34,782 bases of DNA from Candidatus Solibacter sp. Lineage in GTDB: Bacteria; Acidobacteriota; Terriglobia; Bryobacterales; Bryobacteraceae. The stretch is from contig JANYAH010000067.1 of NCBI GenBank assembly GCA_025361425.1, forward strand, positions 1 through 34,782, in the 5' to 3' direction. This document shows, in pieces, positions 5,517 to 26,681 of this stretch; the stretch's first letter is position 1, and each line of letters begins with the position of its first letter. The notes below the pieces were generated by a model that was not told the DNA's origin, did no database searches, and saw only the letters and a list, made by a program, of their open reading frames with translations. The translations under genes and the position numbers were made by a program.

Positions 5517-5563
5517 GGAGATAACTTCTCCGAGCTTCGCTCGGATGCACAAGGCGGAGCCTT
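5517..5563. terminator. Nested hairpins between convergent genes (possible bidirectional terminator)
   Basis: Three small inverted repeats lie in the gap between the TPR gene and ctaF. They are GGAGA/TCTCC (5517-5531), the perfect 7-bp stem TCCGAGC-TTC-GCTCGGA (5529-5545), and AAGGC-GGA-GCCTT (5551-5563). There is no long T-run, so termination is inferred from position and structure only. Part of this sequence also matches the end of a repeat element found elsewhere in the window. Confidence 0.45.
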
Positions 5564-5570
5564 ATGCGAC
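5546..5570 (+). repeat. Terminus of a dispersed repeat element, abutting the ctaF stop codon
   Basis: These 25 bases match, at 22 positions by my alignment, the reverse complement of 25327-25351, one end of the element inside the glycosyltransferase gene. The shared core is CACAAGGCGGAGCC, followed by T/A-TATGC-G/C-AC. The outer end falls at position 5570, the third base of the minus-strand ctaF stop codon. The other end of this copy is not clear, so this is probably a partial or diverged copy. Confidence 0.6.
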
Positions 5571-5884
5571 TATTTCCCGGGGACGCCGAGAATGCCGCGG
5601 CTGGCGAAATCCGTCATGGTGAGCAGCAGCAGAATCGCCAGCCATAACAGGCCCCCCAACACCACCAACCTGGTGAGCTTCGTGCTGTGGCGGATGTGCA
5701 TGAAGAATAGCGCCACCAGGACCATCTTCGCCGACGCGATGCCCAGCGCGACCACGACGCTGAAGCCTCCAAGATCGACGCGAGCCACCGCGGTGGTCAC
5801 ACCGGTCGCCACCAATAGCGCCAGCAGGATCTTTACGTAAGTTCCGACGGAATCGATATGCGTATTTTCTTGTGGATCGCTCAT
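5570..5884 (-). CDS. ctaF: Cytochrome c oxidase subunit IV (caa3-type)
   Basis: Small membrane protein of 104 residues with three predicted membrane helices (around ILLALLVATGVTTAVA, VVALGIASAKMVLVALFFMHIRH and LVVLGGLLWLAILLLLTMTDF). The motif FFMHIRHSTKLT is typical of the prokaryotic oxidase subunit IV family, which stabilises heme-copper oxidases. It is the last gene of the operon, two bases after ctaE. Its first eight residues, MSDPQENT, and their DNA closely match the start of actB, 11 kb upstream in the same operon. The stop codon abuts a repeat end. Confidence 0.9.
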   Translation of the reverse strand: MSDPQENTHIDSVGTYVKILLALLVATGVTTAVARVDLGGFSVVVALGIASAKMVLVALFFMHIRHSTKLTRLVVLGGLLWLAILLLLTMTDFASRGILGVPGK

Positions 5885-9205: not shown

Positions 9206-10144
9206 CTATCCAACCCGCTTGAGAATACGCCGGTCACGGCGCAGATCGCGGCGCAGAAAGATGAACAGGAACACGCCGCAGACCAGCGTGAAGCTTGCGC
9301 CGGCGAAGCGCACCAGGTTCATCGCCACCGCGCCGTACTTGCCCGTAGCCGGGTCATAGTGGTAACAGAACAACAGAATTTGATCCACCGCGCTGCCAAT
9401 CTTGTTTTGCGATGCTTCCACCAGACCGAGACGGATATCGGTGGGCGCATACTCCACTCCGTAAAAGTACCGCGAGAGGCGGCCTTCGGGAGTCAGCACC
9501 ATGATTCCGCTGGCGTGCGCGAACTGACCTGTGGCCGCATCGTACTTGTAGTGGTAGCCGATGGCGTCCATGAGAGCCGTGATGTTGGCCTGGTCGCCGG
9601 TCAACAGGTGCCAACCGTTGGCCGTGCCCGGCCGGCCGTAGCGGCGCAGGTACATTTGCTTCTTGCCGGCTGCGGTTTCCGGCGTATCCTTGGGGTCGAA
9701 GCTGACGGCGACGATTTCGAAATCCTTCCCGGGATCGAGCGAGACCGCCTTCAGGCTGCTGGCCAACCCGTTGAGGATCTGGGTACACAGCATGGGGCAA
9801 CGGTAATAGACGGGCACGAGAATCACCGGCTTGCCGCGCAGGAAGAAGGAGGAGAGCGGTACGCCGCGTCCGGATTCATCCTGGAACATGAGGTCGAGCG
9901 AGATTTGCTGGTCGAGCCGCTGATCGATGCCGACGCCTGCGAGCGCGCCGGGAAGAGCCGGCTTCAGATTGCTGTCCTGCATCCTGGATTGCTGCGCGGG
10001 GCCCAGCAACTGGCCCGGCTGGGCAACGGCGGCACCGGCAAGGGCGAGCACACACACGGCAACTTGGATGGTGTACTTGGCAGGCGAAAGCGCCTGCCCC
10101 ACCAGGCACGCGAGCGTCTGTGCAGCAGGGTGGATAAGTCTCAT
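9206..10144 (-). CDS. SCO1/SenC-type copper chaperone for oxidase assembly
   Basis: Protein of 312 residues with a thioredoxin-like SCO core. The copper-binding motif is YRCPMLC with Cys116 and Cys120, and a candidate histidine ligand lies in the AHASGIMVLTPEGR segment. Its expected job is to deliver copper to the CuA site of CtaC, the next gene. Beyond the core it has a C-terminal extension with one membrane helix (FTLVCGVFLFIFL). The ATG overlaps the preceding stop by four bases (ATGA). The N terminus is odd: residues 14-23, LVGQALSPAK, are encoded by a perfect palindrome just before the hydrophobic signal segment, which points to an inserted repeat that lengthened the signal region. Confidence 0.9.
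   Translation of the reverse strand: MRLIHPAAQTLACLVGQALSPAKYTIQVAVCVLALAGAAVAQPGQLLGPAQQSRMQDSNLKPALPGALAGVGIDQRLDQQISLDLMFQDESGRGVPLSSFFLRGKPVILVPVYYRCPMLCTQILNGLASSLKAVSLDPGKDFEIVAVSFDPKDTPETAAGKKQMYLRRYGRPGTANGWHLLTGDQANITALMDAIGYHYKYDAATGQFAHASGIMVLTPEGRLSRYFYGVEYAPTDIRLGLVEASQNKIGSAVDQILLFCYHYDPATGKYGAVAMNLVRFAGASFTLVCGVFLFIFLRRDLRRDRRILKRVG
10079..10098. repeat. REP-like palindrome translated inside the SCO gene
   Basis: GGCAGGCG (10079-10086) and CGCCTGCC (10091-10098) form a perfect 8-bp stem with loop AAAG. On the coding strand it reads through as part of VGQALSPAK, between the start codon and the hydrophobic signal core. Very similar GGCAGGCG-type palindromes are, from memory, common dispersed repeats in Solibacter-like genomes. 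That recollection needs a genome search to confirm. Confidence 0.6.
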
Positions 10145-23311: not shown

Positions 23312-24786
23312 TCAAGAAGGTCACCACCCACCTCTCCCAAAATGAAGCGCTCCTCTTCGAGCGCAGTTCCCCCGGCAAGAAGGCCTACCAACTTCCCGAA
23401 CTCGATGTCCCCGCGGTGGACGCTGCTGTGGCGCTCGGCGCCGAAAACGTGCGCCAGGAAATCGAAGGCTTCCCCGAAATCAGCGAGGTGGAAGCCATCC
23501 GCCATTTCACGCGCCTTTCCACCTGGAACTACGCTATCGATTACGGCATGTACCCGCTGGGTTCCTGCACCATGAAGTACAATCCGCGGATCAACGAGGT
23601 GGTGGCGCGTACCGAGGGTCTGGCCTGGGCGCATCCGTATCAGCCCGAGTCGCTGTCGCAAGGCTGCATGCAAGTCATGGAAAGCCTGGAAGCGGCGCTC
23701 GCCGAAATCTGCGGCATGGACGCAGTCACCCTGCAACCCGCGGCCGGCGCGCATGGCGAACTTACCGGCATCCTCTTAATTCGCGCGCTGCTGGAAAAGC
23801 GCGGCAACCCGCGCCAAAAGATCCTGATCCCGGATTCCGCGCACGGCACCAACCCGGCCAGCGCAGCCATCGCGGGGTACGCCGTGGAAAGCATTAAGTC
23901 CAGCGAGACCGGCGGGGTAGATCTCAGCGCCTTGGAACAACTGGTAACCGGCGACGTCGCCGCCCTCATGGTGACCAACCCGAACACGCTTGGCGTGTTC
24001 GAAAACAACATCGTCCGCGTGGCCGAAATTCTGCACAAGAAAGGCGCCATGCTGTACATGGATGGCGCCAACATGAACGCCTTGGTGGGCATCGCGCGCC
24101 CCGGCGATTTCGGCGTCGATGTGATGCACCTAAACCTGCACAAGACCTTCTCCACGCCTCACGGAGGCGGCGGGCCGGGTGCGGGCCCGGTCGCGGTGAA
24201 GAAGGTATTGGAGCCGTTCCTGCCCACACCGCGCCTCAAGCGCGCCGGCAAGAAACTGGCCTTCGACTACAAGCGCAAGCACTCCATCGGCCGCGTCAAA
24301 GCCTACTACGGCAACTTCGGCGTGCTGGTAAGAGCCCTCGCTTACATCCAGGCGCATGGCGGTCCCGGACTGCGCAACGCCACCATGGATGCCGTGCTCA
24401 ACGCGGTCTACATCCGCAAGGCGCTGGAACCCTACTACGACCTGCCGTACCAATCGCCCAACATGCACGAGGTGGTCTTCAGCGACAGCCGGCAGGCGAA
24501 GCTCGGCGTCCGCACCGGCGATATCGCCAAGCGGCTGATCGATTACGGCTTCCACCCGTACACCGTCAGCTTCCCCATGATCGTCCACGGCGCGCTCATG
24601 ATCGAGCCCACCGAAACCGAAGGCAAGCTCGAAATCGACAGCTTCATCGACGCCATGATCTCGATCGCGCATGAGATTGAGACCGACCCGCGGATGGTGA
24701 AGAACGCGCCTTATAACACCCGCACCAGCCGCGTGGATGAAGTCACCGCCGCGCGCAAGCCGGTGCTGCGATGGAAGCCCGCGTAG
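23308..24786 (+). CDS. gcvPB: Glycine dehydrogenase (decarboxylating) subunit 2
   Basis: Protein of 492 residues, the PLP-binding half of the split P-protein. Lys279 in [18 protein letters not shown] is the Schiff-base lysine. Other marks are [55 protein letters not shown] and [13 protein letters not shown]-type sequence ([18 protein letters not shown]). It catalyses glycine decarboxylation and transfer of the aminomethyl group to GcvH. Translation is coupled to gcvPA through a 4-base overlap. The last 16 bases overlap the following membrane protein gene. Confidence 0.97.
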
Positions 24787-26681
24787 CGCGCCAATCCCTG
24801 CTGCTGTTGATGGGGCTGGTGCTGCTCATCCGGATCCCGTTCCTCAATCAGGCAATTCAGGGCGACGACCTCATTTATCTCACCGAGGCGCGGCACGCGC
24901 TGGTAGACCCGCTGCATCCCAGCGACGTGAATTACGTCTTCATGGGCGACGCGGTGGATCTGCGCGGCCACTCCCACCCGCCGGGCAATGCGTGGCCGCT
25001 CGCCGGGCTGATTCTCCTGTTCGGCGACGTCCGGGAGGTGCCGTTTCACACCGCGTACATCGTGTTTTCCATGATCGCGGTGTGGGCCATGTGGTCGCTG
25101 GCCCGCCGCTTTACTGGGCGCCCGCTGTGGGCCACGCTGCTCTTTCTCGCAGTGCCGGCGTTTGTGGTCAACGGAGGTTCGCTGGAAGCCGATCTCCCCT
25201 TCCTGGCCTTCTGGATGGCGTCGATCGCGCTCTTCCTTTCCGGCCGTCTCGCCATGGCGGCCCTCGCCATGGCCGCCACCACGATGATGGCGTATCAGGC
25301 CGTTTTCCTGATACCGATTTTGTTTTGTGGCATATGGCTCCGCCTTGTGCCGTGGGAAAGGCCCGCTGGCCTGCCGGCATGTGGAACACAAAGACAGGGT
25401 CGAAGAACCACCCCGCCCACCCGAGAATCCCCCGGGGCTCGCCGAGTTTTTCATGGGATTTCGCGGGCCGAAGGCCCATCACAACAGGCCGGGAGGCCTG
25501 TCCTACTTTATGCCACCCTGCTCACACCCCTACTCGTCTTCATCGCCTGGCAAATTTTCACGCGCCTCACCACCGGAACCATGCCCGCCGGCAAACTTGC
25601 CGAGTACTTCTCCACCTACGCCTTCCAGGCGATCGAGCACAAACTCCAGAACGCCCTGATGCTCTTCATCCATTCCTGGTGGATCGTCTTCCCCGCCCTG
25701 GTGCCCCTCACCGCGGCCTCCGCCTGGCGCAATCGCCGCGACCCCGGCACGCTATTCCTGCTCGCCTGGATGGGCATTTTCTTCGCCGGCGCCCTGGCTA
25801 TCTTCTTTTCCGGATCCGCCCGCTACCTGTTGCCGATGGCCGCGCCGGTCGCCATCCTCGCCTCGCGCCTCTCCATCAAATGGCTCGCTCCCGCCTTCGC
25901 CATCCAACTCGCACTCGCGCTCGCTCTCGCTACTGTCAACTACCAGCACTGGAACGGCTACCGCGCGTTCGCCGCCGAGTTGCGTGCCCCGTCCGCCGGA
26001 CGCCGCGTGTGGGTGGATAACGATTGGGGCCTCCGCTACTACCTGGAAAGCGACCACGCCCTGCCGGCGCGCAAAGGCCAACACACTCGGCCCGGCGACA
26101 TCGTCGTGAGCAGCGAACTCGGGCACAACGTGGAGTTCACCGCTCCGCTTTCATTGCTCACTAGCGTCAACATCCGAGCCACACTTCCGCTGCGGCTCAT
26201 CGGGCTGAATTCGCACTCGGGATACTCCACCGTGGATGAAGGCTTCCTCCCGTTCGGCGTGTCGAGTGGGCCCGTCGACCGGGTGATGGCGCGGGTCGTC
26301 ATGGAGCGCCATGCCACGCGGGAATACCTGACAATCAGTTCGCCCGAAGCCGCCGAGCAGGTGGTTAGCGGCATCTTTCCCGCCGATCGCTGGATGTCTC
26401 AAGCCGGAGTCGTCGTCCTTAAAACCCCCGCCGTCCCCAAGAAAGTCCGCGCGGAGTTCTATATTCCACCGAACGCCCAAGCGCGCCACGTCACGCTCCT
26501 GCTCGATGGCCGCGAAATTGCTTCCCACACGTACGCGGGACCGGGGCCCTACACGCTCACTTCCGCTGAACCGTTCCAGGGCGCGACCGTGGAAATCCGC
26601 GTCGACCGCACGTTTACCGCGCCGGGCGACCGGCGCGCGCTCGGCATGGTGCTGATCGGCGTGGGTTTCGCCCAACAGTAG
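24771..26681 (+). CDS. Membrane glycosyltransferase-like protein (GT39/ArnT-like) carrying an inserted repeat
   Basis: Protein of 636 residues. The N-terminal two thirds is polytopic, with many helices after QGDDLIYLTEARHAL. The paired acidic residues just after the first helix are typical of GT-C transferases that use polyprenyl-linked sugars. The C-terminal third is soluble and rich in strands, presumably periplasmic. Residues 186-249 do not fit: a hydrophilic, Pro/Arg/Gly-rich run (VPWERPAGLPACGTQRQGRR and onward) separates two helices. It is encoded by a 190-bp element with terminal inverted repeats. The gene overlaps gcvPB by 16 bases, so it is cotranscribed, although no link to glycine metabolism is evident. 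Substrate unknown. Confidence 0.75.
   Translation: MEARVARQSLLLLMGLVLLIRIPFLNQAIQGDDLIYLTEARHALVDPLHPSDVNYVFMGDAVDLRGHSHPPGNAWPLAGLILLFGDVREVPFHTAYIVFSMIAVWAMWSLARRFTGRPLWATLLFLAVPAFVVNGGSLEADLPFLAFWMASIALFLSGRLAMAALAMAATTMMAYQAVFLIPILFCGIWLRLVPWERPAGLPACGTQRQGRRTTPPTRESPGARRVFHGISRAEGPSQQAGRPVLLYATLLTPLLVFIAWQIFTRLTTGTMPAGKLAEYFSTYAFQAIEHKLQNALMLFIHSWWIVFPALVPLTAASAWRNRRDPGTLFLLAWMGIFFAGALAIFFSGSARYLLPMAAPVAILASRLSIKWLAPAFAIQLALALALATVNYQHWNGYRAFAAELRAPSAGRRVWVDNDWGLRYYLESDHALPARKGQHTRPGDIVVSSELGHNVEFTAPLSLLTSVNIRATLPLRLIGLNSHSGYSTVDEGFLPFGVSSGPVDRVMARVVMERHATREYLTISSPEAAEQVVSGIFPADRWMSQAGVVVLKTPAVPKKVRAEFYIPPNAQARHVTLLLDGREIASHTYAGPGPYTLTSAEPFQGATVEIRVDRTFTAPGDRRALGMVLIGVGFAQQ
25327..25516. 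repeat. MITE-like element inside the glycosyltransferase gene
   Basis: A 190-bp segment is bounded by perfect 8-bp terminal inverted repeats, GTGGCATA (25327-25334) and TATGCCAC (25509-25516). Inside are further palindromes: GGGCC-GAA-GGCCC (25465-25477), ACAGGCC-GGGA-GGCCTGT (25484-25501) and CCCCGGGG near 25430. One end matches 5546-5570 in this window. No coding capacity of its own and no obvious target-site duplication were seen. The host reading frame stays open across it. Confidence 0.65.

What the first reader, a model, noticed from the sequence alone, without database searches (positions are those of the whole stretch)
25327..25516. MITE-like repeat inserted in frame inside a membrane glycosyltransferase gene
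Perfect 8-bp terminal inverted repeats bound a palindrome-rich 190-bp segment that encodes about 63 hydrophilic residues between two membrane helices, yet the frame stays open for 636 codons. An in-frame, apparently tolerated insertion would mean the loop can accept a foreign insert, or that the gene has been domesticated or is newly disabled. The repeat boundaries are seen directly. Mobility is inference.
Basis: partly seen in the sequence, partly recalled or inferred. Interest (0 to 1): 0.62.

Follow-up and report, generated by a model that had tools for sequence, protein, structure and literature searches.

The report
Nested mobile palindromes inside membrane enzyme
In a soil-bacterium membrane sugar-transferase, a short loop has been replaced by layers of small copied DNA palindromes that stay in reading frame and would add about 50 probably floppy residues, apparently without breaking the gene; this kind of event is already known in other bacteria, but here relatives record several of the steps.

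Summary
In detail: the ORF is open, and the 8-bp inverted repeats are exact and are real insert ends. It is not one MITE but a nested stack of REP-type palindromes with GTGG/GTAG heads: an outer REP-A pair (complete in sister L040, 31-nt arms), an inner REP-B pair (intact in L039) and an 85-bp block absent from L039, part of a ~117-bp composite with full or partial copies elsewhere in the genome. Of 34 orthologue rows readable at the loop, 4 from one Solibacter clade carry the insert and 30 do not. REP-B has 46 pattern matches (37 places) in the genome, reversed control 0; in three congeners it flanks a RAYT-like transposase gene on both sides, the likely mobiliser. No such gene was found in the window's own genome. 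The host protein has a GT-C glycosyltransferase fold; residues 201-240 are predicted disordered. dN/dS outside the loop is 0.18-0.19, so the gene does not look disabled. In-frame intragenic REPs, and REP heads supplying TAG stops, were reported by Di Nocera et al. 2013. This is a new, well-polarised member of a known kind. Transposition, translation and retained activity are inferred.

The parts
24771..26681 (+). host gene: GT-C (PMT_2/ArnT-like) membrane glycosyltransferase, 636 aa
   Evidence: open ORF; PMT_2 at E<=0.01 in 15 of 33 aligned proteins but not in the window protein; Foldseek best hit ArnT 5f15, E 3.9e-6, then other GT-C enzymes
25293..25337 (+). helix before the insert (residues 175-189)
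   Evidence: AlphaFold2 model
25327..25350 (+). outer REP-A, left arm (GTGGCATATGGCTCCGCCTTGTGC)
   Evidence: 12 sites in the genome with up to 3 mismatches, this one included, reversed control 0; shared with L039, L040 and partly L041
25509..25516 (-). outer REP-A, right arm, 8-nt remnant
   Evidence: 9 nt in L039, 31 nt at 97% in L040
25352..25375 (+). inner REP-B, left copy, degenerate (GTGG head)
   Evidence: aligned with the intact left REP-B of L039; hairpin
25484..25506 (-). inner REP-B, right copy (GTAGGACAGGCCTCCCGGCCTGT)
   Evidence: pattern match at 25484-25503; its L039 counterpart pairs with the left copy, 25-nt arms at 96%
25392..25508 (+). ~117-bp composite repeat that ends in the right REP-B; full or partial copies elsewhere in the genome
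25399..25483 (+). 85-bp block of the composite absent from sister L039 (net difference 90 bp, because the two L039 matches overlap by 5 bp)
   Evidence: the L039 match stops at 25398 and resumes at 25484
25371..25490 (+). residues 201-240, predicted disordered (block pLDDT 44-49)
25494..25574 (+). helices after the insert (residues 242-250 and 252-268)
5547..5570 (-). another REP-A copy; its first base is the last base of the TAG stop codon of the gene call 5570-5884 (-)

Best explanation
A pair of REP-A palindromes (a REPIN-like unit) landed in the short, arginine-rich loop of a GT-C glycosyltransferase in the ancestor of a Solibacter clade, and the reading frame stayed open. A REP-B pair then landed inside the first, and a composite REP-B element of ~117 bp now fills its spacer in the window's species (or was shortened by deletion in L039). 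The most likely route is copying by a RAYT, an HUH tyrosine transposase that acts on single-stranded hairpins with a 5' GTRG foot (mechanism from established knowledge). The present insert has no stop in any forward frame, and its residues form an unstructured, basic loop, probably on the cytoplasmic side, so the enzyme tolerates it. Shown: repeat families, nested order of ends, inherited outer layer, open frame, purifying selection outside the loop, RAYT-like genes flanked by REP-B in congeners. Inferred: transposition by that RAYT, translation, loop topology, retained activity, no function for the insert.
For: Sub-blocks dispersed in the genome. REP loops only in window, L039, L040 and L041 of 34 readable rows. 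L040 keeps the outer 31-nt inverted repeat, L039 the inner 25-nt pair. The L040 insert has five other near full-length places in its own genome at 74-85% identity (three read). REP-B lies on both sides of a Y1_Tnp gene in L144, L154 and L160; the L154 and L160 proteins score 79.7 and 79.3 bits against NF047646 REP_Tyr_transpos, cut-off 80. dN/dS outside the loop 0.18 and 0.19. Insert predicted disordered, most other blocks above pLDDT 80. No stop in the three forward frames of 25327-25516. Loop net charge +7, against +3 or +4 in five short loops counted. The REP-loop species and partial L043 group together, support 99/96.
Against: Neither of the two Y1_Tnp genes of the window's genome has REP-A or REP-B nearby, so mobility there is unproven; no Y1_Tnp gene next to REP-A in the 30 loci examined. 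The two RAYT-like proteins fall just under the NCBIfam cut-off, and the L144 frame ends early. On the window branch, loop left out, 43 synonymous to 21 nonsynonymous codon changes, against 40:7 on the L039 branch; the N-half alone is 8:9. L041, sister to the window in the tree (94/93), lacks REP-B, which needs a loss or replacement; the fork joining L039 is weak (81/20). Gain in the window versus loss in L039 is unresolved.
Confidence: 0.88

Rival explanations
1. A classical MITE: a deletion derivative of a DDE transposon bounded by terminal inverted repeats, inserted once with a target-site duplication.
For: Perfect 8-bp inverted ends and repeated DNA.
Against: No target-site duplication is visible by eye at 25327/25516. 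The whole 190-bp unit matches only itself. The parts have GTRG heads and hairpins, and a RAYT-like gene lies between REP-B copies in three congeners. DDE transposase genes were not searched.
Confidence: 0.05
2. The insert has newly disabled the enzyme and the open frame is a passing state.
For: Relatively many nonsynonymous changes on the window branch, 43:21 against 40:7, with 8:9 in the N-half; L041 has a frameshift elsewhere in the gene.
Against: dN/dS 0.18-0.19 outside the loop; 35:12 in the half downstream of the insert; the frame stays open to the C-terminus; the model keeps a GT-C fold with the insert disordered.
Confidence: 0.1
3. The enlarged loop is a natural variable loop of this protein family, and the repeats arose from it or by chance.
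For: Loop length varies somewhat among orthologues.
Against: REP-A and REP-B occur elsewhere in the genome next to other genes; 30 of 34 rows lack them; reversed-pattern controls are 0.
Confidence: 0.02

Closest known systems
GTAG-tagged REPs, including intragenic REPs (Di Nocera et al. 2013, PMC3733652; section 15 read whole, other passages incl. parts of the abstract)
   Same: GTAG foot (also GTGG in some families), short hairpin, inverted dimers, location near gene 3' ends, TAG of the head used as stop codon, in-frame intragenic copies of 20-30 aa and up to 43-82 aa, association with RAYT genes
   Different: Its main text does not mention Solibacter or the words membrane and glycosyl; its supplementary gene lists were not seen. 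Here three layers are nested in one loop and several steps can be read from sister species
REPIN/BIME, REP pairs linked to RAYTs (Nunvar et al. 2010, PMC2817692, passages read; the REPIN concept is recalled)
   Same: two inverted REPs around a spacer; RAYT gene between inverted REPs in relatives
   Different: the window copy has an enlarged composite spacer, and no REP-B-flanked RAYT was found in its own genome
Rickettsia palindromic elements (RPE; from passages of Di Nocera 2013, otherwise recalled)
   Same: palindromic repeat translated in frame inside protein genes
   Different: GTRG foot here; Di Nocera 2013 gives a CGTC end for R. conorii RPE sequences; different phylum
Class 3 TnpA-Y1 structures, ~600 copies in Solibacter usitatus (PMC6006769, passages read)
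   Same: same broad lineage; hairpins tied to a Y1 transposase
   Different: that class has a CnGA foot; the elements here have GTRG
Enterobacterial RU elements found inside genes (PMC2759123; seen only as a listing with the start of its abstract)
   Same: small MITE-like repeats found intragenically
   Different: not compared here

Membership tests
GTAG-type REP / REPIN | 5' GTAG or GTGG foot followed by an imperfect palindrome | tested here: met
GTAG-type REP / REPIN | high copy, dispersed | tested here: met
   46 matches at 37 places in own genome, reversed control 0; strict pattern in 14 of 61 genomes, own included, with 112 matches in G005 and 15 in the own genome
GTAG-type REP / REPIN | mostly outside genes, near 3' ends | tested here: met
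   of 47 distinct REP-B sites (relaxed pattern, only within the own-genome loci fetched, not a whole-genome scan), 16 have a gene's stop codon in the head and 16 more have a same-strand gene end 0-16 bp before it; 15 have neither; 5 of the 47 fall inside a gene call, three of them weak or N-terminal (simple codon-bias gene caller)
GTAG-type REP / REPIN | inverted pairs | tested here: met
   L039 25-nt arms, L040 31-nt arms; a wider REP-B pair around the composite in L003
GTAG-type REP / REPIN | RAYT gene flanked by the same REP | tested here: met
   REP-B on both sides in 3 of 30 Y1_Tnp loci examined in the genus, on one side in L163 (33 matches listed); not in the own genome's two loci; none for REP-A
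GTAG-type REP / REPIN | movement shown by experiment | not testable with these tools
   no experiment
classical MITE | target-site duplication | tested here: inconclusive
   none seen by eye at the ends; an old insert could have lost it
classical MITE | same TIRs on a full-length DDE transposon | not tested
   only Y1_Tnp genes were searched
Rickettsia palindromic element | in-frame palindromic insert in a protein gene | tested here: met
Rickettsia palindromic element | CGTC terminal tetranucleotide (R. conorii) | tested here: not met
   heads are GTGG/GTAG
GT-C glycosyltransferase (host protein) | GT-C fold / PMT_2 profile | tested here: met
   Foldseek: ArnT, AftD, AglB, OST, ALG9, ALG12 at E<=5.5e-4; PMT_2 in 15 of 33 aligned proteins, not in the window protein at E<=1; no PDB sequence match

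The most novel reading that the evidence does not exclude
This loop region is a recurrent landing and growth site: unrelated repeat families enter neighbouring loops of the same enzyme within one genus (REP-A and REP-B here; a different 32-bp high-copy repeat in the preceding loop of L046), and the added basic, disordered peptide has been put to use, for instance in regulating or anchoring the glycosyltransferase. REPs would then be a routine source of new protein loops in Solibacteraceae.
Probability: 0.12. Interest if true: 0.66.

Novelty: new member of a known kind. Interest (0 to 1): 0.42.

Why it matters
It gives one gene in which empty, once-inserted and nested states of mobile palindromes coexist in sister species while the enzyme as a whole stays under purifying selection. 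That makes the old question of whether palindromic repeats build protein sequence open to direct test. It also places a GTRG REP system with RAYT-like genes in a genus of Acidobacteriota.

Tried and rejected
Rfam at gathering thresholds over the window gave only a tRNA. Folding the whole segment gave no excess stability. The strict pattern GTGGCAYAAGGCN{2,8}GCCTTNTGCC found nothing in the own genome; a relaxed form found 12 sites. The two Y1_Tnp genes of the own genome were checked as cognate transposases: L030 and L031 carry no match to the REP-A, B, C or D patterns, and against the composite only short exact matches, the best 14 nt in L031 at E 0.002. The idea that the composite core derives from a RAYT end was not supported: no core match at E<=1e-8 in L144, L154 or L160. 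A PDB sequence search with the orthologue profile found nothing. NCBIfam gave nothing for the window protein. Single MITE, chance ends and disabled gene were considered and set aside as above. 'The REP head gives the stop codon' looked new at first; Di Nocera 2013 already states it. Seven searches of the held open library listed no paper that by its title or abstract start describes GTRG REPs in Solibacter; PMC3174227, on repeats and duplications in the Solibacter usitatus genome, was listed and not opened.

Full report
Observation. ORF 24771-26681 (+) encodes 636 aa without a stop. The 8-bp inverted ends at 25327-25334 and 25509-25516 are exact. By themselves they carry little weight: 44 perfect 8-bp pairs with a span of 160-220 bp exist in the window, and the segment folds no better than shuffles (z -0.47). 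Genome and relatives decide the matter.

Repeat content. A search of the window's own genome (5.32 Mb, 377 contigs, 95.4% complete) with the 190 bp gave 29 matches at E<=0.001, the self match included; only the self match covers the whole, and most others lie within query positions ~59-183. Laid out, the 17 best show a ~117-bp composite that ends in a hairpin headed GTAGGACAGG, with several copies abutting gene ends. The hairpin pattern GGACAGGCN{0,16}GCCTGT has 46 matches, at 37 distinct places, and the reversed control 0. I call them REP-B and REP-A; the names are mine.

History in relatives. Eleven named loci encode a relative, three of them partial (L043, L046, L047); 7 of 11 are labelled Candidatus Solibacter or Bryobacterales. 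Of 151 genomes searched, own included, 70 have a match at E<=1e-60. I compared 35 rows at the loop, not all the genomes with a match; 34 were readable (L108 was not). Window, L039, L040 and L041 carry REP-A-derived loops; the other 30 do not, and many have a short basic loop such as FHRRxRARW. G005 (L043) is cut off before the loop and G001 had no match. L046 has instead an in-frame insert in the preceding loop, part of which is a ~32-bp repeat; the insert has 57 further matches in its genome, most of them to that part. L111 has a similar RDRKG stretch in this loop, noted by eye.

In L040 the REP-A pair is complete (31-nt arms, 97%, 35 nt between); in L039 a REP-B pair (25-nt arms, 96%, 17 nt between) sits within a shrunken REP-A pair (9-nt arms); L041 shows no inverted pair of 8 nt or more. 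The window resembles the L039 state plus an 85-bp block, 25399-25483 (90 bp net, since the two L039 matches overlap by 5 bp); a deletion in L039 between short ACAGG repeats could equally explain it. The L040 unit has five other near full-length places in that genome (74-85% identity), three of which I read. The arginine-rich codons of the short loop are not recognisable in the REP clade, so the insert replaced or eroded them. In the tree the REP-loop species plus partial L043 form one group (99/96), L041 is sister to the window (94/93), and the fork joining L039 is weak (81/20; bootstrap not settled). That L041 lacks REP-B is against the simplest one-gain story.

Associated enzyme. The own genome has two Y1_Tnp matches; neither has REP-A to REP-D nearby. 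In the genus, 33 Y1_Tnp matches were listed, in 9 of 9 genomes; 30 loci were examined, and REP-B lies on both sides of the gene in L144, L154 and L160 and on one side in L163. L154 and L160 proteins match NF047646 REP_Tyr_transpos at 79.7 and 79.3 bits, just under its cut-off of 80. The L144 frame ends early. The strict REP-B pattern occurs in 14 of 61 genomes, own included, with 112 matches in G005 and 15 in the own genome.

Host protein. PMT_2 matches 15 of 33 aligned proteins, not the window protein itself. The AlphaFold2 model (33 sequences, mean pLDDT 87.8, pTM 0.84) leaves residues 201-240 at pLDDT 44-49 between helices 175-189 and 242-268. Its solved-structure matches at E<=5.5e-4 are GT-C enzymes, ArnT first (E 3.9e-6, TM 0.41/0.47); weaker rows include unrelated folds. 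The short loops counted are net +3 or +4 (5 counted) and the inserted ones +1 to +7 (4 counted), so by the positive-inside rule (recalled) the loop is probably cytoplasmic; this was not tested.

Selection. Outside the loop dN/dS is 0.18 against L039 and 0.19 against L040 (568 codons each); in the loop it is 1.59 and 0.43 (35 and 34 codons, alignment uncertain). Branch counts with L040 as outgroup, loop excluded: window 43 synonymous to 21 nonsynonymous codon changes, L039 40 to 7. The gene is constrained on the whole, perhaps less so on the window branch.

Why it can be tolerated. The 25327-25516 segment has no stop in its three forward frames; two of the three reverse frames are blocked. REP-B usually sits at gene 3' ends: among 47 distinct sites in the own-genome loci fetched (relaxed pattern; not a whole-genome scan), 16 have the stop codon inside the REP head (14 TAG, 2 TAA), 16 more start 0-16 bp after a same-strand gene end, and 15 have neither (simple gene caller). 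Five of the 47 fall inside a gene call; the window gene and a hypF-like gene (L058; named by eye, recalled) are the clear ones.

Comparison. Di Nocera et al. 2013 (PMC3733652; section 15 read whole, other passages) report GTAG REPs providing TAG stops, intragenic REPs of 20-30 aa and up to 43-82 aa, and different REPs at about the same recB site in two Xanthomonas. The kind of event is therefore known. What this case adds is a nested, polarised series in one Acidobacteriota gene and REP-B/RAYT-like units in that genus. Novelty is set at new member of a known kind.

Noticed in passing
window 5547-5570 (-): A REP-A copy starts on the last base of the TAG stop codon of the gene call 5570-5884; L029 shows the same overlap and in L206 REP-A directly follows a TAG stop.
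   Followed up: partly
own-genome REP-B sites (L002, L003, L005, L018, L053, L063, L067, L070, L073, L082 and others): The TAG of the REP head is the stop codon of the upstream gene call at 14 of 47 sites (TAA at 2 more); already described for GTAG REPs in other bacteria.
   Followed up: yes
L058 (own genome C89:1850-1869): A REP-B copy lies in frame inside a hypF-like gene (name by eye), in what looks like a linker between domains.
   Followed up: partly
L160:1157-1801: A RAYT-like gene flanked by REP-B has a further REP-B copy at its own 3' end, which supplies the last codons.
   Followed up: no
L150, L153, L155, L157: Other Y1_Tnp genes lie near other hairpin families (REP-C, GTGGGACAGACGATCG...; REP-D, GTGGGGCAGGCG...), hinting at several REP/RAYT systems in one genus.
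   Followed up: no
window about 10079-10105: A REP-D-like hairpin lies about 40 nt inside the 5' end of the gene call 9206-10144 (-); the true start codon may be further downstream.
   Followed up: no
G008 contigs: Many copies of the core hairpin lie within about 150 bp of a contig start, so these repeats probably break the assembly and copy numbers may be underestimated.
   Followed up: no
L041: The orthologue carries a frameshift near residues 87-89; pseudogene or sequencing error.
   Followed up: no
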